Assembly: GCF_000385215.1 (NCBI RefSeq) | Contig: NZ_ARQK01000058.1 | Location: 62,001-126,000 of the forward strand | Source of the DNA: Thioalkalivibrio thiocyanoxidans ARh2 | Lineage (GTDB): Bacteria > Pseudomonadota > Gammaproteobacteria > Ectothiorhodospirales > Ectothiorhodospiraceae | Direction of reading: 5' to 3' | DNA: 64,000 nucleotides | Shown here: in pieces, positions 36,687-46,451 of the stretch | Position numbering within the stretch: position 1 is the stretch's first letter | Layout: each line of letters starts with the position of its first letter | The notes under the pieces: generated by a model | Told to the model about the DNA's origin: nothing | What the model saw: the letters and a program-made list of their open reading frames with translations, nothing else | Database searches by the model: none | Made by a program: the position numbers and the translations under genes

Positions 36687-37601
36687 CTAGTCCATTGCGG
36701 TCGCCAGTGCCGACAGGTAATAGATCGCCAGCATCAGAATCACGACACCCAGCAGCACTGCCAGTGCCTCGCGAGGAACATAGCGCTGCAGCCGCGCGCC
36801 GACATACATGCCCAGGGCGCCTCCGATGCCGAACAGCACACCCAGCTCCCAGTCCGGCCGCGCAGCGACGCCCGGTGGCGCGGGCAACAGGCTGTACATC
36901 AAGACGCCCGCAATCGACGTGATGAACGTGGCCGCCAGCGCCGCGCCTGCCACCGTGTAGACCGGCAAGCGGAAGATGGCTACGCAAAACGGTGCAATGA
37001 GTGCACCGCCCCCGATGCCATAGATCCCACCGATGATGCCGACGACGAATGCGAGCAACGCCATCGCCGGGAGGCTGAACGAGTGTGTGTCTGCCCCGAA
37101 GGTGAAGGTAACCCTGAAGGGGTCGACCGTCCGGGTGCGTGCAACGAACCCCGCCTCCATCCCCGACGCGCCCCGGCGGGCCGTTCCCCGCCAGGGCGCG
37201 AAGTCGGCCAGCAAGCGCAGGGCGAGATACATGAGCACCATACCGATGAAGACCTTGAACAGCGCCGGCTCGTACAGGTGATAGACCCGAACGTAATAGC
37301 CGACGCCAACACCGGGCAGGGTTCCCGCGACGATCACCCAGTTCAGCGACCACAGCATTCGCCCTTCGCGGAAAAAGCGGTAGACGCCCGAGGGTATGGC
37401 AACAAGATTGAAGACCAGGTTGGTCGCGCTCACCGATGGAGCCGTGTAGTTCAGTACACTCATCTGAAACGGCAACAGCAGGAATGCCCCGGAGACACCC
37501 ACCATCGCCGTCACCAGCGAGATCAGAAACGCGATCAGCGGTGGCAGCCACAGGCTGGTTTCCACGCCCGATCGTGCAAACTCGTACTGGAGGAATTCCA
37601 A
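36687..37601 (-). CDS. TauE/SafE-family permease (sulfite/sulfonate export type)
   Basis: 304 residues with about eight helices in two halves, each carrying the family glycine motif: VTAMVGVSGAFLLLPF in the first and GIIGGIYGIGGGALIAP in the second. These permeases export sulfite, sulfoacetate or other sulfur anions. The start is TTG at 37601 with GAGGGGGA before it. Its position beside the periplasmic DsrE-like protein and the SLC13 symporter supports a sulfur-compound role. The central hydrophilic loop (about 130-175) is longer than usual. Confidence 0.9.
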   Translation of the reverse strand: MEFLQYEFARSGVETSLWLPPLIAFLISLVTAMVGVSGAFLLLPFQMSVLNYTAPSVSATNLVFNLVAIPSGVYRFFREGRMLWSLNWVIVAGTLPGVGVGYYVRVYHLYEPALFKVFIGMVLMYLALRLLADFAPWRGTARRGASGMEAGFVARTRTVDPFRVTFTFGADTHSFSLPAMALLAFVVGIIGGIYGIGGGALIAPFCVAIFRLPVYTVAGAALAATFITSIAGVLMYSLLPAPPGVAARPDWELGVLFGIGGALGMYVGARLQRYVPREALAVLLGVVILMLAIYYLSALATAMD

Positions 37602-37789
37602 GGCAATCCCCCTCGACCTGACACAGGTTCAGCGAGGGGAGACGAACCCCTGCCGGCGCCAGGTCACGTTCGTCGCGATCCTCTGCCATCATGCCCAGGC
37701 GGCATCCACCACAGCCGCCGGCTCCGCCCCCCTCAGCCACCCGCTACCGCTCGTTCATCACGGCCCCGACACTGCCGGACTTCAGGCGC

Positions 37790-39289
37790 TCAGCCAGCAA
37801 GGATGGGCATACCCAGCAGCGGCCAGATCACCAGCACCGAGAAGCCAATCACAACCGTAAGCACAATGCTGGCGGGAACACCGGTACGGAAGAACTCCCA
37901 GGTGGAGAACTGACCGGACTGGTAGGCGATGGCATTGGGCGCCGCACCCACCAGAAACAGGAAAGGCATGCCGGTGGCCACCAGCGCCACGAACAGCACG
38001 ACATGCGGACTCACTCCCATATAGCCGGCCATGACCAGCGCAACCGGCAGCACAATGGCAATGGCGGCGACATTCATGATGACGTTGGTCATCACCACGA
38101 AGAACAGGCCCAGCCCCAGGACGAACAGCAGCCAGTGGGCCCCCTCGAACATCCCGAGCCAGGTAATCGCCAGCCATTCGGCGGCCCCGGTCTGCCACAG
38201 GCAGAATCCGATGCTCATCGCACCGCCAAACAGCAGGATGATGTTCCAGGGGATCTCCTCGAGTTCCTTCAGCGTGAGCACGCCCAGCGCGAAGAACAAC
38301 AGCGTCGTGACCAGCAGGATCGCCGGGCGGGACACGGGCTCCAGCGCCGGGACCATGGCCTGCAACGCCAGCACCAGAACGGCGCCCACCACGATCAGGA
38401 TCGTGAGCCACTCGTCCCGCTTCATCGCGCCGAGTTCCCGGTAGCGGCGCTCGGCCACCTCCGTCAGCCCCTCGATGCGCTTTTTCTCCGGGGGGAAGAA
38501 GATCAGCATCATCCACCATATGAGTACCGTCATCAGCAGCCCCACCGGCGCCAGATAATAAGTGACCTCGAAAAAGCCGACGTCGATATCGGCCACGTCC
38601 CGCGCAAAGGAGATCCCCACGATCCCGCGCGCCGACCCCAGCAACGTGATGATCGAACCGGCCCCTGCCGCGAAGGCCATGCCGATGAACAGTCCCTTGC
38701 CGAATCGTGTCGGGCGGTCGCCCGCGTCGTACAACGAATAGATCGCCAGCAGCACCGGGAAGATGGTCGCCGCCACCGCGGTGTGGGCCATGACCAGGGT
38801 GAGCGCGACCGTCACCAGGAACGTGCCCAGATAGATGGTGCTGGTGCGTTCCCCCACCAGCATCAGCATGCGATAGGCCAGCCGCTGGGTGAGCCCCGAC
38901 TTGGTGAACGCGATGCCGATCACCAGCGAGGCGAAAATGAACCACACGGCCGGATCCATGAAATTCCCGAATGCCACCTCGGGCGGGCGAATCAGGAACA
39001 GGGCCTGGAAGACACCGATGGCAATCGCGGTGACACCGATCGGTATGGGGGTAAACACCCACCAGATGGCCGCCAGCAGGAACAGGCCCAGTGCGGCCTT
39101 GCCGGCATCGCTCAGCGGGAATTCCTCGCCGGCCGGGTCGACCGCCGGGGCCGGGGCGTCCATGAACCAGAAGAGGAAGAATACCGCCAGTCCGGCGGCC
39201 AGGATCGACCAGCGCCGCCAGTCCAGCGTGTTCGGTGCTGCGCTGTCTCCCGGGTCGTCTTTCGACTCCGATCTAGGCTCCTCGCTCAT
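37790..39289 (-). CDS. SLC13/DASS-family sodium:anion symporter
   Basis: 499 residues with about 12-13 helices in the DASS arrangement. A hydrophilic N terminus is followed by PIGVTAIAIGVFQAL, AHTAVAATIFPVLLAI and WNIILLFGGAMSIGF, and the FFVVMTNVIMNVAAIAIVLPV segment corresponds to the SNT-like substrate/sodium clamshell; the usual SNT is TNV here. Known substrates in the family are sulfate and dicarboxylates. It starts within the upstream CBS-domain gene (17-bp overlap) with GGGAGAAG before the ATG, so the two are coupled. The substrate is not determinable. Confidence 0.88.
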   Translation of the reverse strand: MSEEPRSESKDDPGDSAAPNTLDWRRWSILAAGLAVFFLFWFMDAPAPAVDPAGEEFPLSDAGKAALGLFLLAAIWWVFTPIPIGVTAIAIGVFQALFLIRPPEVAFGNFMDPAVWFIFASLVIGIAFTKSGLTQRLAYRMLMLVGERTSTIYLGTFLVTVALTLVMAHTAVAATIFPVLLAIYSLYDAGDRPTRFGKGLFIGMAFAAGAGSIITLLGSARGIVGISFARDVADIDVGFFEVTYYLAPVGLLMTVLIWWMMLIFFPPEKKRIEGLTEVAERRYRELGAMKRDEWLTILIVVGAVLVLALQAMVPALEPVSRPAILLVTTLLFFALGVLTLKELEEIPWNIILLFGGAMSIGFCLWQTGAAEWLAITWLGMFEGAHWLLFVLGLGLFFVVMTNVIMNVAAIAIVLPVALVMAGYMGVSPHVVLFVALVATGMPFLFLVGAAPNAIAYQSGQFSTWEFFRTGVPASIVLTVVIGFSVLVIWPLLGMPILAG

Positions 39290-39842
39290 GGACTTCTCCC
39301 AGTACGTGCTTGACTACCAGGTCGAAGATATCGGCCAGCCGCAACGCCCCGACCACCTTGTCGTCCTTGACGACCGGAAGCACGAAGGCACCGCACGCGA
39401 CCATTTCCTCGAGCCCGTGCGCCAGCATGTCGTCGCGGGAGAGCACTTTCCTCACTGGTTCCGCCAGGTCGCCCGCGGTGCGCGAAGCCAGATCGAGCCT
39501 GGTCTCCAGCCGGTCCGCCAGCAACCGCTCCCAGAAGACCTGCATGGCCACGTTCTCGCCGGAATCGGCCCGACCCCAGTACCCCTGGGCGGCACCACGG
39601 GCTTCCCGCTTGAGCAGCGAGGGCTCGATCGCCTTGAGCAGTGTGTGGATCGACAGGATCCCTTCCAGGCCGCCATCCTCCTTCAGGACCAGAAGGTGGC
39701 GGAAATAGGGAGTCCCGTCCTTGCAGGGCTGGTGCCCCAGGGCCGTGAGTGCATCTTGTATGGTCGCGGAGGAAGGCAGGTGTGGATAAAGTTCGAGGGG
39801 AATCATGAACTCCCCGATCAGGAGTCGGTTCGGATCGGCCAT
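39273..39842 (-). CDS. CBS-pair regulatory protein coupled to the SLC13 symporter
   Basis: 189 residues with two CBS motifs: GTPYFRHLLVLKEDGGLEGILSIHTLLKA (about 45-75) and ACGAFVLPVVKDDKVVGALRLADIFDL (about 150-178), separated by a charged helical insert. CBS pairs bind adenine nucleotides and gate partner proteins. Its end overlaps the symporter start by 17 bp, so it probably regulates that transporter or the operon. A perfect 17-bp palindrome sits 66 bp upstream of its start. Confidence 0.82.
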   Translation of the reverse strand: MADPNRLLIGEFMIPLELYPHLPSSATIQDALTALGHQPCKDGTPYFRHLLVLKEDGGLEGILSIHTLLKAIEPSLLKREARGAAQGYWGRADSGENVAMQVFWERLLADRLETRLDLASRTAGDLAEPVRKVLSRDDMLAHGLEEMVACGAFVLPVVKDDKVVGALRLADIFDLVVKHVLGEVHERGA

Positions 39843-40095: not shown

Positions 40096-40881
40096 TCAGT
40101 GCTGAGCGCCCTCCCGGTGCTCGAAGTGAACCGGCTGCTCGGCAGGTACCCTGGCGCTTCCGCCCGCACCGTGCGGACAGATGAACTCGTCGGCCTGGAG
40201 GGGGTCTTCGAGCGGGCGCTTGAAGGGCGTTGGGTCAACGCCCAGCCGGGCGCACTCGTCGGCGAGTCCCTCGTCCAGCCATGCCGCGGTCTCCGGATAG
40301 GGGGAGGCGGCATTCTGCTCCCGCAGCCGCGGCAGCAAGACGCCCTGCCATCCCCCCAGATGGTCCGTCAGGAATCGGGCCACAGCCTTATGGGTAACCT
40401 CCGCGTGTCCGCCCCACCCCTCGGAAATGGCGTAGGCCTCCTTGACCAGCAGGATCCCGTAGAACCCCAGCTGAACGGCCAGGTGATCGGGTCGCTCGGC
40501 GTCCTCATCCGACGTGTCGAGGCCAAAGGCCTGGTAGAAGCCGCTGATATCCGCCAGCAGCGGACCCGGCCCGGCCAGTTGGGTACTGCCGGCATAGGTG
40601 GCCGCGTGGAGAGAACAGGGCGTGCGGCCCATGAACAAGCGCGTGTATTCCGCCCTGAGGGTTTCGTCGTCAAGCGCCGCCCAGGCCTCCAGCACCGCGG
40701 ACCCCGACGGGAGCACGGCGAGGGTTTGGGGACAAACGGCCGCTTCCAGGGCCTGGTGGATCCTCGCGCCGTCCCCGAGTCCGGGATAGGCGAAGCAGGT
40801 GCCCAGGATCCGAAAACGGTAGGCCCGGGCGAGGAGATCGGAGATCTGCAGCTCCGGTGACTGGGTTTGCGCGGTGCTCAT
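40096..40881 (-). CDS. TorD/NarJ-like molybdoenzyme chaperone (delta subunit)
   Basis: 261 residues, helical, of the TorD family: LRAEYTRLFMGRTPCSLHAATYAG is the hallmark EYxRLF...PC segment, then DHLAVQLGFYGILLVKEA. Such chaperones bind the Tat signal of the catalytic subunit and guard cofactor insertion before export; they are not part of the final enzyme. GAGGAG lies at the end of the gamma gene, four bases upstream. As the last gene of the operon it completes the set alpha, beta, gamma, delta. Confidence 0.88.
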   Translation of the reverse strand: MSTAQTQSPELQISDLLARAYRFRILGTCFAYPGLGDGARIHQALEAAVCPQTLAVLPSGSAVLEAWAALDDETLRAEYTRLFMGRTPCSLHAATYAGSTQLAGPGPLLADISGFYQAFGLDTSDEDAERPDHLAVQLGFYGILLVKEAYAISEGWGGHAEVTHKAVARFLTDHLGGWQGVLLPRLREQNAASPYPETAAWLDEGLADECARLGVDPTPFKRPLEDPLQADEFICPHGAGGSARVPAEQPVHFEHREGAQH

Positions 40882-40885
40882 GGGC

Positions 40886-41725
40886 TTACTCCTCGACTTT
40901 GAGGTCGATCCAGCCGGACCAGGACTTGCGGCCACCCACTTCCCGGTTGCCCCCGTCCCAGACGGCAAAAGCGGCCTGGGTTTCGGTTCCCCGAGAGAGG
41001 TCGGGATCGCCCGGCATTATCTGATTGGCGGGACGCGTGATGGCCACGCGCCAGGTCCCGTCCTCCCAGACACCCCAGCCGTCGGCATGTTGCATCGGCT
41101 TGACAGTGAGGCTGCTCCACCCCTCCGCCATCTGCTCCAGCACGGGGCTTTCGAATGGGCGGGCCACCGGGTTGTCCACCCCCATGGCCCCGGCAAAGGC
41201 CCGGGCGTCGGTGACCCTCAGGACCTCGTCCGGATAAACGTCGACCAGGGCATAGGGATAGAGATCCCGAATGTCCGGCTCTCCATCGACCAGATCGCGC
41301 TGAAAAGCGGCCCGCCACTGGAGGATGTTCACCTTGCCCCCGGGGTTCCCCATCATCGGACTGGCGGGCCCCTCCACGGGGAACTGGACCGCCACCTGAT
41401 CGCCGAACGCGTCCGTCACAAACCAGTCGTCACGGGTGTCGTCGTCCCATTCGATCAGGATCCCGACCCAGTTCCCGTTGTTGACAGCCCGGACCGTCAG
41501 CTCGGTCACCGCAATGTCCGCGTGATGGGGCCGCGTGACCTGCTGGGGATTCAGGCTCACGGTCACGGCTGGCGCCTGATCCCACACCTCCGACTCCGGA
41601 TCATTGAAGGGCCCGGTGGCATCCACCGGGACGGCGCGCAGCGTATCGGCCGCGGCCACGGGTGCCGCGGCCATGCCCACCACCAGGGCGGCGGCAAGGC
41701 TGCAGTGAAATGCGGTCTTGTTCAT
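40886..41725 (-). CDS. Haem-b gamma subunit of a type II DMSO-reductase-family enzyme
   Basis: 279 residues with a Sec signal (about 1-25, AAA-A), as in SerC, DdhC, EbdC and NxrC/PcrC-type gamma subunits. In the haem b group (SerC, DdhC, EbdC) the ligands are one Met and one Lys. Here PMMGNPGGKVNILQWRA in the middle offers the Met, and GGRKSWSGWIDLKV at the C terminus carries the expected Lys region. No CxxCH is present, so a c-type haem is excluded. The protein takes electrons to or from the beta subunit in the periplasm. AGGAGG precedes the ATG, 14 bp after the beta gene. Confidence 0.86.
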   Translation of the reverse strand: MNKTAFHCSLAAALVVGMAAAPVAAADTLRAVPVDATGPFNDPESEVWDQAPAVTVSLNPQQVTRPHHADIAVTELTVRAVNNGNWVGILIEWDDDTRDDWFVTDAFGDQVAVQFPVEGPASPMMGNPGGKVNILQWRAAFQRDLVDGEPDIRDLYPYALVDVYPDEVLRVTDARAFAGAMGVDNPVARPFESPVLEQMAEGWSSLTVKPMQHADGWGVWEDGTWRVAITRPANQIMPGDPDLSRGTETQAAFAVWDGGNREVGGRKSWSGWIDLKVEE

Positions 41726-41739
41726 GACGGGCCCTCCTG

Positions 41740-42867
41740 TCAGGTGACGTTGGTCCGGTGCACGTCCAGATCCGAGTCGTACTCGACCCGCATGTAGATG
41801 GGCTCGCGCATCGGCACCCGCACCACCTCGGCACGCTTGTCGTCGTAGCCGATCACGTTCCTTCCCTCGACCTTGAAGTGGTGGATGATCTCGGGGGTGG
41901 CGCCGAACAGGAGCATCGCACCCAGCAGCTGGGGGTCTTCACTCGCACGCTTGTAGGTGTCGATGGCGTCCTCGACGCCCCAGCCGAACATCTGCCGCAG
42001 GTACTGCGGCGGGACGTGGATCGGCGGGATGTAGAAGGTGTTCGGCTCCAGGCCAAACTGGGGGTAGAGCGGCTTGCCGATCTTGGCCACATGGATCAGG
42101 TAATCCATGGGGTTGTCCTCGCGGATCTCGTCGGGCCGGGAAATGAAGCCCTGGAGCCGGATCTTGCCGATGCAGGTGATCGTGCACTGGGTCTGCCGGT
42201 TGTTCTCGATGGCCGGGTAGCAGCCGATGCACTTCTCCGACACACGCGTGACCGAGTTGAACATCACCTTCTTGTAGGGGCATCCCTTGACGCATTCCCG
42301 ATAGCCCCGGCAGCGCTGCTGGTCCAGGAGAACGATCCCGTCTTCCGGCCGCTTGTAGATGGACTGCCGTGGGCAGGCGGACAGGCAGGCGGGATAGGTG
42401 CAGTGATTGCAGATGCGGGGCAGATAGTACATCCACTGCATGTGCGGCATGGTCAGCAGTGCCCCCTGCTCCATGGAGCCCGTGCAGTCGTCTTCCCCTA
42501 TATTGGGATAGGCCCAGTCCTCGTCATCGGGTGTGTAGCCCAGGACAATCTCGCCATCGGGGGCCGCCTCGAACAGGGTCTTGCCCTGGTATTCGGGGCC
42601 ATCCATCTCCTGCACCCCGTGCTGGTCCAGGATGTTCACATCCCAGCCCAGCGGGTAGTAGCCGTAGGGCTTGGTTTCGACGTTGTTCCAGAGCATATGC
42701 TCCTGGCCGCGGCCCGAGGTCCAGGTCGTCTTGCAGGCGACCGTGCAGGTCTGGCAGGCGATGCACTTGTTGGTATCGAAGATCATGGCGAATTGTTTCT
42801 CGGGCCGGACCCCCTCGAAGGGGTAGTCCATCTCGCGACCGAGTTGCCAGTTGTAGACGCGGGACAT
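41740..42867 (-). CDS. Iron-sulfur beta subunit of a type II DMSO-reductase-family enzyme
   Basis: 375 residues with four cluster-binding cysteine groups as in NarH: CIACQTCTVACK, CNHCTYPACLSACP, CRGYRECVKGCPYKK and CIGCYP...CTITC. In the third group the second position is Tyr (CRGY), where NarH has Trp, so that cluster is expected to be [3Fe-4S] and the other three [4Fe-4S]. There is no signal peptide, so the protein is exported bound to the Tat-bearing alpha subunit. AAGGAG precedes the ATG; 19 bp separate it from alpha. Confidence 0.93.
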   Translation of the reverse strand: MSRVYNWQLGREMDYPFEGVRPEKQFAMIFDTNKCIACQTCTVACKTTWTSGRGQEHMLWNNVETKPYGYYPLGWDVNILDQHGVQEMDGPEYQGKTLFEAAPDGEIVLGYTPDDEDWAYPNIGEDDCTGSMEQGALLTMPHMQWMYYLPRICNHCTYPACLSACPRQSIYKRPEDGIVLLDQQRCRGYRECVKGCPYKKVMFNSVTRVSEKCIGCYPAIENNRQTQCTITCIGKIRLQGFISRPDEIREDNPMDYLIHVAKIGKPLYPQFGLEPNTFYIPPIHVPPQYLRQMFGWGVEDAIDTYKRASEDPQLLGAMLLFGATPEIIHHFKVEGRNVIGYDDKRAEVVRVPMREPIYMRVEYDSDLDVHRTNVT

Positions 42868-42886
42868 GGCGAGTCTCCTTGAGCCG

Positions 42887-45800
42887 TTATTCGTCGGTAT
42901 CGCGGATGAAGTCGCCCGCGAGATAGCGTTTCATGGCGTCGCTTTCGGACGTGGGCCGCAGCCCCAGGGTCACGGGGCGCCAGGCACCCTCGCCCCCGAT
43001 GCCGCCCGGTTCGGCCTTGGTGATCTTGGCCATGGCCTCGCGGGGGGCACCCGTCACGCAGTGGACATCCGCGGCGAAACCGCGGCCCTGGACATGGCTG
43101 AACAGGCTCCTCCAGACCAGACTGTTGGTCTGATGGGTGGGCTTGAGCCAGGAGCGGGTCAGGCTCTGGTGGCCGCCGTAGCGGAACATGGACTGGTAGT
43201 TGGTCTCGGGATTCTTGGCGAGACCGTCATCCCGCTCCTCGTGCCCCTTCACCGAGCCCGGGGTGGCCATGTAGCCGTTGAACCACATCCGTGTGACCCC
43301 CGGCGGCGTGCCGGGGTAGTACCGCGCCCGGGCCATGAGGCGGGCCACCTTGTAGGCCTCCTCCTTGCCCTCTTCCTGCCAGCCGCGGAACGGCAGCTCC
43401 TTGGGATCCCCGTCGATCCAGACATAGTCCCCGTCCTCGACACCCAGCTCGCGGGCATCGTCGGGGTGGATATCCACATACAGTTCGCTGGAGCCGGGTA
43501 TCCGCTTGTCACGCCGGTAGATGTCGCCGAAGGGCCCGAACAGCACCATCATGTAGTCGGTGTCGATGGGCGTCGTGTGGGCGCCATGCCGATACTTCGG
43601 CGTATGGAAGATGTACCGGTAGCCGTCCCCCAGCAGCGGGTGCGTGCTTTCCAGGATCTCTTCCCCGGTGCGTACCACGTTTCGCATCTGGCGGGGCTGG
43701 TGGCCCAGATCATCCGGGTCCATGCCCCAGTCCTCCGGCACTTTGGGGCGGATCGCCGGATGGTCCTTGGCCAGGATCACGCAGGGCTCGTGGAAGGTGG
43801 AGTCCGAGGGCTCGCGATAGACGACCAGGTTCTCGCCCGCCTCGATGAACTCCTGCTCCGGACGGTAGAACTCCAGTCGCCCGGTCCTGGTGTACCAGGG
43901 CTTGGACTCGTGCACCTGCTCGTAGCTGAAGATCCGCGGGTAGGTCCGGGTATTCATCAGGGCGGGTACGCCCCGGCGGGCCAGCCCGTTGATGGTCTCG
44001 AACCGGTAGCCGCGCGTGGCCGCCGAGTAATCCAGAATCCGCTGCAGGTAGATATCCACCCTGTTGTCGGCGACGAATTTCCAGTAGTCCTCGAACCGCT
44101 GGTCCCCCGTCTCCTCGGCCAGGGCCCGGGACACCAGGAGATAGGTCTCCATGTCGTGGACGGTGCCGTAGGTGCGCCGCAGCGGCGTGGAGGGGAAGAC
44201 CTGGAGGAATGGGTTGGTGTTCGAGGCGGTCATGTCCGGGTACTTGAACTCCATCCAGGAGTCCACCCCGTAGACGATGTCGCTGTACTCGCAGGACCCG
44301 GTCCACCACCAGTCGTTGTAGACCACCAGTTCCGTGTTGGGCAGCGTGTTGTTGACCACGTCATAGTGGCCCTTGGTGTTGCCCAGGCTGGAGTTGGAGT
44401 TGGCCTGCCAGATCGCCTTGGTCGGCGTGGGCACATGGTTGCCGGTGGTGATGACCTTGTCCCCGGCCTGCATGATCCGCTCGCCGTTCGACCAGTAGTG
44501 CATGGACTCGTAACGGATGGTGGAACGCCGCTTCACTTCCCCGTTCGGATCCAGCTGGATGTCGAACGGGTCCTCGGAAGTCCACTCACCGGCGCCGGAG
44601 AACAGCGTCACCCGGTAGTTGCCGGCGTAGCTGCCGATATTGCCCCCGTGGCGACCCACGCTGCCGGTCAGCGCCACCAGCATGAAGATCGCGCGGTCCT
44701 TGTTGTCGTTGTTCCAGAACTGATTCGGGCCCATGCCGCAGGCGATCAGCGTCTTGCCCGGGTGATCGGCAATATCGTTGGCCAGCCGGGTCACGGCCTC
44801 GGCGGGTGCCCAGGTGATCTTGCTGACCTGCTCGGGCTGGAGGTTCTCGTCGATGTACTGCCGGGTCAGGTCGAAGACCGGCCGCACCTGGACGGTCTCG
44901 CCGTTGGCCAGCGGCACCTCGAACTCGCCCTCCAGGGCCGGATCCATCCCCAGCTTGTCGAAGTGGTCGCCCACCTGGTCGGTGGCCACGGCGGCCGGCT
45001 TGTCCGCGTTCCGATCCCAGACCACGTAGTCCGCGAAATCACCTTTCAGGTGCGCCGGGATGTAGCGGCCTTCCTGCTGGTGGGTGAGCGGGGCCTCTTC
45101 CCCTTCCGCCAGCACATGGGTCCAGTTGTCGGGCTCCGCGTCCTGATGGTCGGGGAACACATCGGTGGCCTTCAGACGCTCCAGGGTGTCCATCCTGACG
45201 AGCGCCGGAAGATCGGTGTACCGCTTGACGAAGGACTCGTCATAACGGCCCTCCCGCATGATCACGCCGGCCGCACCCAGCGCCAGGGCCGGGTCGGTGC
45301 CGGGACGGATCACGATCACGTCATCGCACTTGTTGGCGGTGGCCGAATACTCGACGGTAACGCCGATGGTCTTGGCCCCCTTCAGCCGCGCCTCGGTCAG
45401 CCAGTGGCTGTCGGGCATCTTGGTGCAGATCCAGTTCATGCCCCAGGCGATGACCACCTCGGCGTTCTCGCAGTCATGAAACTCGAAGTCGTTAGTCTGG
45501 TCGCCGCACACCATGGTGTGCCCCGGGGGCAGGTCGGTATGCCAGGAGTACGAGTCCCAGGCACCGCTGCCCTTGGCCTCGTCGGGGTCCACGCCGCGGA
45601 CGTGGTGGTCCAGCAGCGCCATGGAATTGCCCATCCGGAAGTTGCCCAGAATGCGGGTAGCGCCAAGCTTGGCCATGCCACCCCGGTACTTCATGGTCCG
45701 GGTGCCGGCGCCCTCCATCGCATCGATCATGGACGACTCGTATCCCTGGGCCTCCAGATACTGGCGGCCCTGGTCGCCGGAGTAGGTTTCCGCGATGTTC

Positions 45801-46369
45801 TTCAGGGCCTTCGCGTGATACTGGGCCGCCTCCTCGAAGTCGACCTTGATCCAGCCGTCCCATCCCCGGTTCAGCAACTCGCCGGGCGGTTTCCCGGTCT
45901 CCGCATCACGCGGAAAGCCCCGGTCCACCCAGTCCTTGAAGCCCTTGCGCAGGAAGGCGCCCTTCACCCGCCGGTCGCCGTACAGGCGCCGGGTCAGCAC
46001 CAGGCCCTTCTGGCAGCAGCGGGGATCCCAGCGGTGGGAGGCCTGGTTGCCGTACAGGTCCGTGGCCTTGCCGTAGCCATAGGTCGGCTCGATCCGCACC
46101 AGGACCTTGTTCTTGTAATAGGCCCGGAGCAGACAGTTGTGGGTATCGTTGGGCGCGCAGGTGAAGACAAAGGAGCCGTCGGTCCGATACAGATCCCGGT
46201 ACATCTGCTCCCAGTCGCGATCCGGATAATCGGCAAGCGGGTTCTCGACGCTGACCGGCGAGAGGAACCGGAACTGCGCCAGCAGCGCACCCGGGTAAGT
46301 GGCGGCACCGAAGCCGGCCAAACCGGCCAGTTGCAGAAAGCGCCGACGAGAGAGGGGGATGTCTGCCAT
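42887..46369 (-). CDS. Molybdopterin catalytic alpha subunit, type II DMSO reductase family (pNar/Nxr/Pcr-like)
   Basis: 1160 residues, starting at 46369 after GGAGGTGAG. A Tat signal (SRRRFLQLAG, residues 7-16) sends it to the periplasm. The first cluster site reads Cys71-x3-Asp75-x3-Cys79 with Cys118/Cys119 later, in place of the NarG His-x3-Cys-x3-Cys. The molybdenum ligand of the type II group, Asp, is found in WHTDLPPGH (Asp279), the counterpart of the NarG WYCDLPP segment. Further bis-MGD regions follow, such as NKCDDVIVIRPGTDPALALG. As recalled, the C/D/C pattern belongs to the periplasmic nitrate reductase, nitrite oxidoreductase and perchlorate reductase side rather than NarG or ethylbenzene dehydrogenase. 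Nitrate, nitrite, (per)chlorate or selenate are possible substrates. Confidence 0.9.
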   Translation of the reverse strand: MADIPLSRRRFLQLAGLAGFGAATYPGALLAQFRFLSPVSVENPLADYPDRDWEQMYRDLYRTDGSFVFTCAPNDTHNCLLRAYYKNKVLVRIEPTYGYGKATDLYGNQASHRWDPRCCQKGLVLTRRLYGDRRVKGAFLRKGFKDWVDRGFPRDAETGKPPGELLNRGWDGWIKVDFEEAAQYHAKALKNIAETYSGDQGRQYLEAQGYESSMIDAMEGAGTRTMKYRGGMAKLGATRILGNFRMGNSMALLDHHVRGVDPDEAKGSGAWDSYSWHTDLPPGHTMVCGDQTNDFEFHDCENAEVVIAWGMNWICTKMPDSHWLTEARLKGAKTIGVTVEYSATANKCDDVIVIRPGTDPALALGAAGVIMREGRYDESFVKRYTDLPALVRMDTLERLKATDVFPDHQDAEPDNWTHVLAEGEEAPLTHQQEGRYIPAHLKGDFADYVVWDRNADKPAAVATDQVGDHFDKLGMDPALEGEFEVPLANGETVQVRPVFDLTRQYIDENLQPEQVSKITWAPAEAVTRLANDIADHPGKTLIACGMGPNQFWNNDNKDRAIFMLVALTGSVGRHGGNIGSYAGNYRVTLFSGAGEWTSEDPFDIQLDPNGEVKRRSTIRYESMHYWSNGERIMQAGDKVITTGNHVPTPTKAIWQANSNSSLGNTKGHYDVVNNTLPNTELVVYNDWWWTGSCEYSDIVYGVDSWMEFKYPDMTASNTNPFLQVFPSTPLRRTYGTVHDMETYLLVSRALAEETGDQRFEDYWKFVADNRVDIYLQRILDYSAATRGYRFETINGLARRGVPALMNTRTYPRIFSYEQVHESKPWYTRTGRLEFYRPEQEFIEAGENLVVYREPSDSTFHEPCVILAKDHPAIRPKVPEDWGMDPDDLGHQPRQMRNVVRTGEEILESTHPLLGDGYRYIFHTPKYRHGAHTTPIDTDYMMVLFGPFGDIYRRDKRIPGSSELYVDIHPDDARELGVEDGDYVWIDGDPKELPFRGWQEEGKEEAYKVARLMARARYYPGTPPGVTRMWFNGYMATPGSVKGHEERDDGLAKNPETNYQSMFRYGGHQSLTRSWLKPTHQTNSLVWRSLFSHVQGRGFAADVHCVTGAPREAMAKITKAEPGGIGGEGAWRPVTLGLRPTSESDAMKRYLAGDFIRDTDE

Positions 46370-46437: not shown

Positions 46438-46451
46438 TTGATCTATCTCAA
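46438..46451 (-). promoter_or_regulatory. FNR-like box upstream of the molybdoenzyme operon
   Basis: TTGAGATAGATCAA on the minus strand: TTGA-N6-TCAA with only one mismatch to the FNR consensus TTGAT-N4-ATCAA. It lies 69 bp upstream of the alpha-subunit ATG inside an unusually AT-rich stretch (46430-46470), where a promoter is expected. It suggests control by FNR or a nitric-oxide-responsive Crp/Fnr protein, i.e. expression without oxygen. Confidence 0.65.

What the first reader, a model, noticed from the sequence alone, without database searches (positions are those of the whole stretch)
40096..46369. Complete four-gene periplasmic molybdoenzyme of unassigned substrate
Seen: Tat-bearing molybdopterin subunit, NarH-like four-cluster subunit, Sec-exported gamma subunit without CxxCH, and TorD-like chaperone, with gaps of 19, 14 and 4 bp. 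The order alpha-beta-gamma-delta matches the ebd type of arrangement, but the N-terminal cluster site does not match ethylbenzene dehydrogenase (His-x3-Cys). It therefore could be a new branch between Nxr/pNar and Ser/Ddh/Ebd enzymes. A sulfur-oxidising host using it for nitrate, selenate or (per)chlorate respiration, or for nitrite oxidation, would be notable.
Basis: partly seen in the sequence, partly recalled or inferred. Interest (0 to 1): 0.72.

Follow-up and report, generated by a model that had tools for sequence, protein, structure and literature searches.

The report
Periplasmic nitrate reductase in sulfur oxidiser
This is a complete operon for a periplasmic molybdenum enzyme from a known but little-studied branch of the nitrite-oxidase/nitrate-reductase family, and an oxygen-sensing control site in front of it suggests that here it reduces nitrate when oxygen runs low.

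Summary
The four genes, coordinates and gaps are real. Alpha is not a new branch between nitrate enzymes and Ser/Ddh/Ebd: it is colinear with Kuenenia nitrite oxidoreductase NXR-A (880 bits; next, PcrA, 184) and falls in the sister clade of the Nitrospira/anammox NXRs. That clade, already in print, also holds a sequence with the Nitrotoga NXR signature. Ligands of molybdenum, Fe-S clusters and haem b are conserved. At least 80 named loci are 55-73% identical (capped list), many from uncultured lineages.

New is a hint about direction. A near-perfect FNR box (9 of 10 bases) lies about 70 bp upstream of alpha. Such boxes precede alpha in 13 of 22 pseudomonadotal relatives (window included), but in at most 1 of 22 for each of 19 permuted motifs, 1 of 72 relatives elsewhere and 0 of 23 canonical NXRs. 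The host has a four-cysteine Fnr, Sat and AprB (sulfur oxidation), and no NarG or NapA over cut-off.

Best reading: an FNR-induced, probably cytochrome-c-linked periplasmic nitrate reductase. Nitrite oxidation remains possible, since such enzymes are reversible. Substrate, activity and host name are untested. New member of a known kind.

The parts
42887..46369 (-). alpha subunit (NxrA/NarG-type molybdopterin subunit, Tat signal)
   Evidence: (880 bits to Kuenenia NXR-A over 5-1156)
41740..42867 (-). beta subunit, 15 conserved cysteines (three 4Fe-4S and one 3Fe-4S cluster inferred)
   Evidence: (390 bits to Kuenenia NXR-B)
40886..41725 (-). gamma subunit, EB_dh family, predicted haem b with Met125 and Lys267, Sec-type leader
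40096..40881 (-). delta, NarJ/TorD-type assembly chaperone
   Evidence: PF02613, TIGR03482 below cut-off
46438..46451 (-). FNR-type box TTGAGATAGATCAA (9 of 10 consensus bases), about 70 bp upstream of the alpha ATG

Best explanation
A soluble periplasmic nitrate reductase of the NXR/NAR sister clade. Tat exports folded alpha with beta attached; gamma goes by Sec and takes up one haem b; delta helps insert the molybdenum cofactor. When oxygen falls, Fnr binds the upstream box and switches the operon on. Electrons from sulfur oxidation would reach a periplasmic cytochrome c through quinol and a bc complex, enter at the gamma haem, pass the Fe-S clusters and reduce nitrate to nitrite at molybdenum. 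Shown: gene set, clade, conserved cofactor ligands, the FNR-type box and its enrichment before relatives' genes, a host Fnr, no NarG or NapA over cut-off in the host. Inferred: substrate, direction, electron route, and that Fnr acts on this box.
For: Full-length match to Kuenenia NXR-A, an enzyme reported to work in both directions (PMC8387239, abstract and passages); ligand conservation; clade with support 100. FNR-type box: 13 of 22 window-type Pseudomonadota, 1 of 72 window-type others, 0 of 23 canonical NXRs; 19 permuted half-sites give 0 or 1 of 22. Host Fnr 256 bits, cut-off 228, with CxxCxxxxxC near the N-terminus and a further Cys. A perfect box also lies before the host's ccoN. Host without NarG and NapA over cut-off; 32 of 39 window-type genomes tested have neither. 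The Natronococcus relative lies near a NO reductase gene.
Against: The single box in the window is by itself not significant (0.68 expected). 9 of 22 pseudomonadotal relatives lack it, and it is nearly absent in other phyla, so it says nothing direct there. Boxes were not corrected for shared ancestry. Other genes in 17 pseudomonadotal loci have such a box in 9 of 129 cases (some may share alpha's box). No box was found near the host's NirK-like and third oxidase-like genes, and the host has no cd1 NirS; NirK over cut-off in 1 of 42 genomes, so no fixed denitrification partner. The host also has aa3 and cbb3 oxidases, which nitrite oxidation would need. Nitrotoga, a nitrite oxidiser, has an enzyme of this clade.
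Confidence: 0.72

Rival explanations
1. It is a nitrite oxidoreductase run forwards: nitrite is oxidised to nitrate in the periplasm and electrons pass through the gamma haem and cytochrome c to an oxidase, for energy or to remove nitrite.
For: Clade shared with the Nitrotoga-type sequence L153; host aa3 and cbb3 oxidases over cut-off; related NXRs are reversible (PMC8387239, passages). A planctomycete study could not assign direction and leaned to nitrite oxidation (PMC10732223, passages).
Against: FNR-type boxes occur before the genes of 13 of 22 pseudomonadotal relatives and of 0 of 23 canonical NXRs; the Nitrotoga-type L153 reaches only 8 of 10 in an AT-rich stretch. Most window-type genomes tested lack other nitrate reductases.
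Confidence: 0.18
2. It reduces another oxyanion (chlorate, perchlorate, selenate) as its main role.
For: Type II DMSO reductase family; TIGR03479 is the best NCBIfam hit.
Against: 297 bits against a cut-off of 985 for that subfamily; PcrA 184 bits against 880 for NXR-A; the ClrA-like L117, beside a chlorite dismutase gene, lies far outside.
Confidence: 0.05
3. The operon was acquired recently and is silent or decaying in this host.
For: The one genus mate and two family mates searched lack it; relatives lie in distant lineages.
Against: All four genes are open with all cofactor ligands, and a site matching a host regulator lies upstream. The comparison with the genus mate at this site was uninformative (one 94-base match).
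Confidence: 0.05

Closest known systems
Ca. Nitrotoga NXR and the putative nitrate reductases of its clade, with the periplasmic NAR of Hydrogenobacter thermophilus (as described in PMC6050957, section 9)
   Same: Clade (the Nitrotoga-type L153, recognised by its QM motif, groups here at 47-48% identity); Tat alpha, Sec gamma without a membrane helix, chaperone; order A-B-C-chaperone
   Different: QT instead of QM at the Mo site; FNR-type box upstream.
Kuenenia/Nitrospira-type periplasmic NXR
   Same: Whole alpha colinear (40% identity over 1126 columns), FS0 with Asp, Mo Asp, substrate Asn, gamma Met/Lys haem b
   Different: Separate clade with support 100; no FNR-type box before any of 23 canonical genes
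Ethylbenzene dehydrogenase EbdABCD
   Same: Order alpha-beta-gamma-delta (recalled), gamma fold and haem b ligand type (PMC8387239, passages)
   Different: FS0 with Cys71/Asp75, not His; alpha 106 bits; EbdA model 122 bits against a cut-off of 2000
Chlorate/perchlorate reductases (ClrA, PcrA)
   Same: Type II family, three subunits plus chaperone
   Different: Far lower scores; the ClrA-like L117 is an outgroup, 27% identity

Membership tests
NXR/NAR sister clade (Nitrotoga type) | Alpha groups with the Nitrotoga-type sequence and apart from Nitrospira/anammox NXRs | tested here: met
   Clade of 37 rows, SH-aLRT 100, against 8 canonical rows, 100 (quick search). Nitrotoga identified only by its QM motif
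NXR/NAR sister clade (Nitrotoga type) | FS0 with three Cys and Asp, Mo Asp, substrate Asn | tested here: met
   Cys71, Asn74, Asp75, Cys79, Cys119, Asp279; numbering from PMC8387239 passages
NXR/NAR sister clade (Nitrotoga type) | Gamma with Met/Lys haem b and Sec leader, no membrane helix | tested here: met
   Met125/Lys267 align with Met155/Lys305; Met in 64 of 65 rows, Lys in 60 of 61 with a letter. Leader read by eye; no helix predictor run
NXR/NAR sister clade (Nitrotoga type) | Nitrate reduction or nitrite oxidation activity | not testable with these tools
   needs enzyme assay
Nitrospira/anammox-type NXR | Alpha within that clade | tested here: not met
NarG (TIGR01580) | Score over 1084 bits | tested here: not met
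   160.5 bits
Ethylbenzene dehydrogenase | His in FS0; NF042978 over 2000 bits | tested here: not met
   Cys71/Asp75; 122 bits
ClrA/PcrA/SerA/DdhA subfamily (TIGR03479) | Score over 984.75 bits | tested here: not met
   297 bits
SerA, DdhA, PcrA | Clade membership in a tree with these sequences | not tested
   No such rows at hand; only a ClrA-like row (L117) was in the tree

The most novel reading that the evidence does not exclude
The sister clade is at root a very widespread, oxygen-regulated family of periplasmic nitrate reductases, the only recognisable respiratory nitrate reductase in many sulfur oxidisers and uncultured phyla and missed by NarG and NapA models. Nitrite oxidation in Nitrotoga would then be a secondary reversal with loss of FNR control.
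Probability: 0.45. Interest if true: 0.62.

Novelty: new member of a known kind. Interest (0 to 1): 0.42.

Why it matters
The Nitrotoga paper says functional data are too sparse to tell whether nitrite oxidation is ancestral in this clade or a late adaptation among strict nitrate reductases (PMC6050957, section 9 read). A planctomycete study could not assign a direction to related genes and leaned to nitrite oxidation (PMC10732223, passages). If a regulatory mark separates the two uses, metagenome genes called nxrA can be re-read, at least in Pseudomonadota, and there is a direct prediction to test: low-oxygen, Fnr-dependent expression with nitrate as substrate. No curated NCBIfam model names the enzyme, so it is easily overlooked.

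Tried and rejected
New branch between Nxr/pNar and Ser/Ddh/Ebd: rejected by scores and trees.

Gene neighbourhood as a guide to substrate: my crude motif patterns found no NirK, NosZ, NrfA or NO reductase near the relatives; they also missed the NO reductase on L013 that Pfam later found, so this is weak. In 14 to 21 of the 89 stretches examined a Rieske protein, cytochrome b, multihaem cytochrome and FAD protein lie near alpha (for example L040, L046, L052, L058), which fits electron exchange with quinol and cytochrome c in either direction. The window has no such neighbours.

NirK as partner: 1 of 42 genomes over cut-off; no support. Empty-site comparison with the genus mate: uninformative.

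The first box count (11 of 82 loci at 9 or more, 1.4 expected from random stretches of the same loci) was replaced. One search sorted types by a motif and put two canonical genes among the others (1 of 74, 0 of 21); sorted by score they are 1 of 72 and 0 of 23. The 13 of 22 did not change.

No structure was predicted.

Full report
Observation. Alpha has the Tat motif SRRRFLQ, beta no signal, gamma a Sec-type leader and no CxxCH, delta is a NarJ/TorD-type chaperone.

Identity. Among solved structures alpha matches Kuenenia NXR-A over its whole length (880 bits, residues 5-1156 on 2-1145); PcrA follows with 184, NarG with up to 138 and EbdA with 106 bits. Beta gives NXR-B 390 and the perchlorate reductase beta 202 bits; gamma gives NXR-C 58 and EbdC 53 bits. 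The NCBIfam hits of all four proteins are below the curated cut-offs.

Cofactors. The Kuenenia structure paper (PMC8387239; abstract and passages seen) gives Mo ligand Asp275, substrate residue Asn70, FS0 held by three cysteines and Asp71, haem b by Met155 and Lys305. The window has Asp279, Asn74 and Cys71/Asp75/Cys79/Cys119 and gamma Met125/Lys267. In relatives the gamma Met is kept in 64 of 65 rows and the Lys in 60 of 61 rows with a letter (4 gaps); 15 beta cysteines are kept in 73 or 74 of 74 rows. The motif CxPNDTHNC is in 83 of 93 alpha rows, two of which lack the region; L017 has Cys for the Asp.

Phylogeny. In a 48-row IQ-TREE (LG+C20, quick search, SH-aLRT only) Kuenenia NXR-A, L018, L020, L156 and four Nitrospirota sequences form one clade (100) and the window with 36 other rows the other (100). 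A 93-row FastTree has the same split; there the branch uniting the 86 window-type rows bears only 0.316, perhaps misplaced by re-rooting. L153, from an unnamed 2.7 Mb genome in the order of G373 (L025, titled Burkholderiales), carries the QM variant of the Y-x4-D-x11-Q motif reported for Nitrotoga (PMC6050957, section 9 read; motif found) and falls in the window's clade on a long branch. Outgroup branches are long, so their order is unsure.

Distribution. The best 80 were kept, 55-73% identical, from Magnetococcales, Thiomargarita, Thioploca, Burkholderiales, Rokubacteria, Acidobacteria, Planctomycetes, Myxococcota and others, nearly all metagenome bins by title. In the host's class 8 of 369 genomes match (host included): four others at 53-68% and three at 39-41%; the genus mate and two family mates do not. 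In the order of G373 8 of 399 match. In the phylum of G389 91 of 295 match, with a gap between 53-57% and 39-44% identity.

Direction. The only FNR-type site in the window (at most one mismatch) lies before this operon; alone that is not significant (0.68 expected). Within 250 bp before alpha, boxes of at least 9 of 10 bases occur in 13 of 22 window-type sequences of Pseudomonadota (window included, 5 perfect), 1 of 72 window-type sequences of other phyla and 0 of 23 canonical NXRs. The 19 permuted half-sites give 0 or 1 of 22. Of 130 rows, 9 were dropped by name (four references, the fragments L047 and L157, N-terminally truncated L013, duplicates L120 and L151) and 4 for a short upstream stretch (L056, L081, L092, L135). 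Pseudomonadota were recognised by record title or by search group. Shared ancestry is not corrected for; 11 of the 13 carriers, compared, are 52-87% identical to each other, and they fall in two subclades of the tree (L015/L016/L061 and the window's). L153 reaches 8 of 10. Other genes in 17 pseudomonadotal loci have a box in 9 of 129 cases. In 185,348 bases of the host (window plus seven stretches) four sites reach 9: this one, a perfect one before ccoN, a perfect one with no predicted start within 350 bp, and one inside a gene. The host Fnr scores 256 bits (cut-off 228) and keeps its cysteines.

Genome content. I chose 43 handles; 42 genomes were held, 39 with the window-type enzyme and 3 with canonical-like alpha. 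NapA is over cut-off in 7 of 42, NarG in 6 of 42. Of the 39, 32 have neither, the host among them; Stieleria's NapA is just below cut-off (829 against 931). All three canonical-like genomes have NarG. Bins may be incomplete, and the set is not a random draw. The host has three other Molydop_binding proteins: one probably assimilatory nitrate reductase and two Soe-like, all my inference, no model over cut-off. It has aa3 and cbb3 oxidases over cut-off, a third oxidase-like gene with CoxB-like, SCO-like and flavohaemoprotein neighbours that may be a NorS-type NO reductase (name recalled), a NirK-like protein below cut-off, no cd1 protein, and Sat and AprB over cut-off.

Comparison. The clade is in print as the Nitrotoga NXR with putative nitrate reductases, and that paper reports Hydrogenobacter thermophilus as a characterised periplasmic NAR (PMC6050957, section 9). 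The Nitrospina paper noted bacterial and archaeal nitrate reductases as the branch nearest to periplasmic NXR (PMC3578206, passages). So this is a new member of a known kind. I saw no paper that ties FNR boxes to the clade: none of the 10 papers listed (of 126 holding at least 3 of nitrite oxidoreductase, FNR box, nitrate reductase, NxrA) held 'FNR box'. That is one narrow search of open papers.

Verdict. Most likely an FNR-controlled periplasmic nitrate reductase fed from cytochrome c; nitrite oxidation is the main rival. Expression and activity would settle it.

Noticed in passing
L108:4532-9287 (host contig C26): A third, divergent haem-copper oxidase-like gene with CoxB-like, SCO-like, membrane-protein and flavohaemoprotein (Hmp over cut-off) neighbours; it resembles a NorS-type NO reductase cluster (recalled).
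   Followed up: partly
L105:1201-2757 (host contig C44): NirK-like protein fused to a C-terminal cupredoxin (137 bits, cut-off 296); by eye the type 1 copper axial Met looks replaced.
   Followed up: partly
L017 (genome G061): Alpha of the same clade with Cys in place of the FS0 Asp (CTPNCTHNC); groups with L126 and the haloarchaeal L013.
   Followed up: partly
L013:12001-21666 (Natronococcus occultus plasmid): A haloarchaeal relative (49% identity) without an annotated alpha gene and starting late in the alignment, followed by beta and chaperone but no annotated gamma, with a NorB-type NO reductase gene nearby.
   Followed up: partly
Possible nitrite oxidisers or bifunctional species.
   Followed up: partly
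L030:9466-10233 and L025:21574-22461: FNR-type regulators with an N-terminal CxxC...CxP motif encoded near the enzyme genes in two relatives.
   Followed up: partly
window 36687-39842 (minus strand): TauE/SafE-type exporter, DASS-type anion symporter and a small protein downstream of the operon; no evidence ties them to it.
   Followed up: no
L110:14607 (host contig C53): A second perfect FNR-type box, between SoeC-like and dihaem cytochrome genes, with no predicted start within 350 bp.
   Followed up: no
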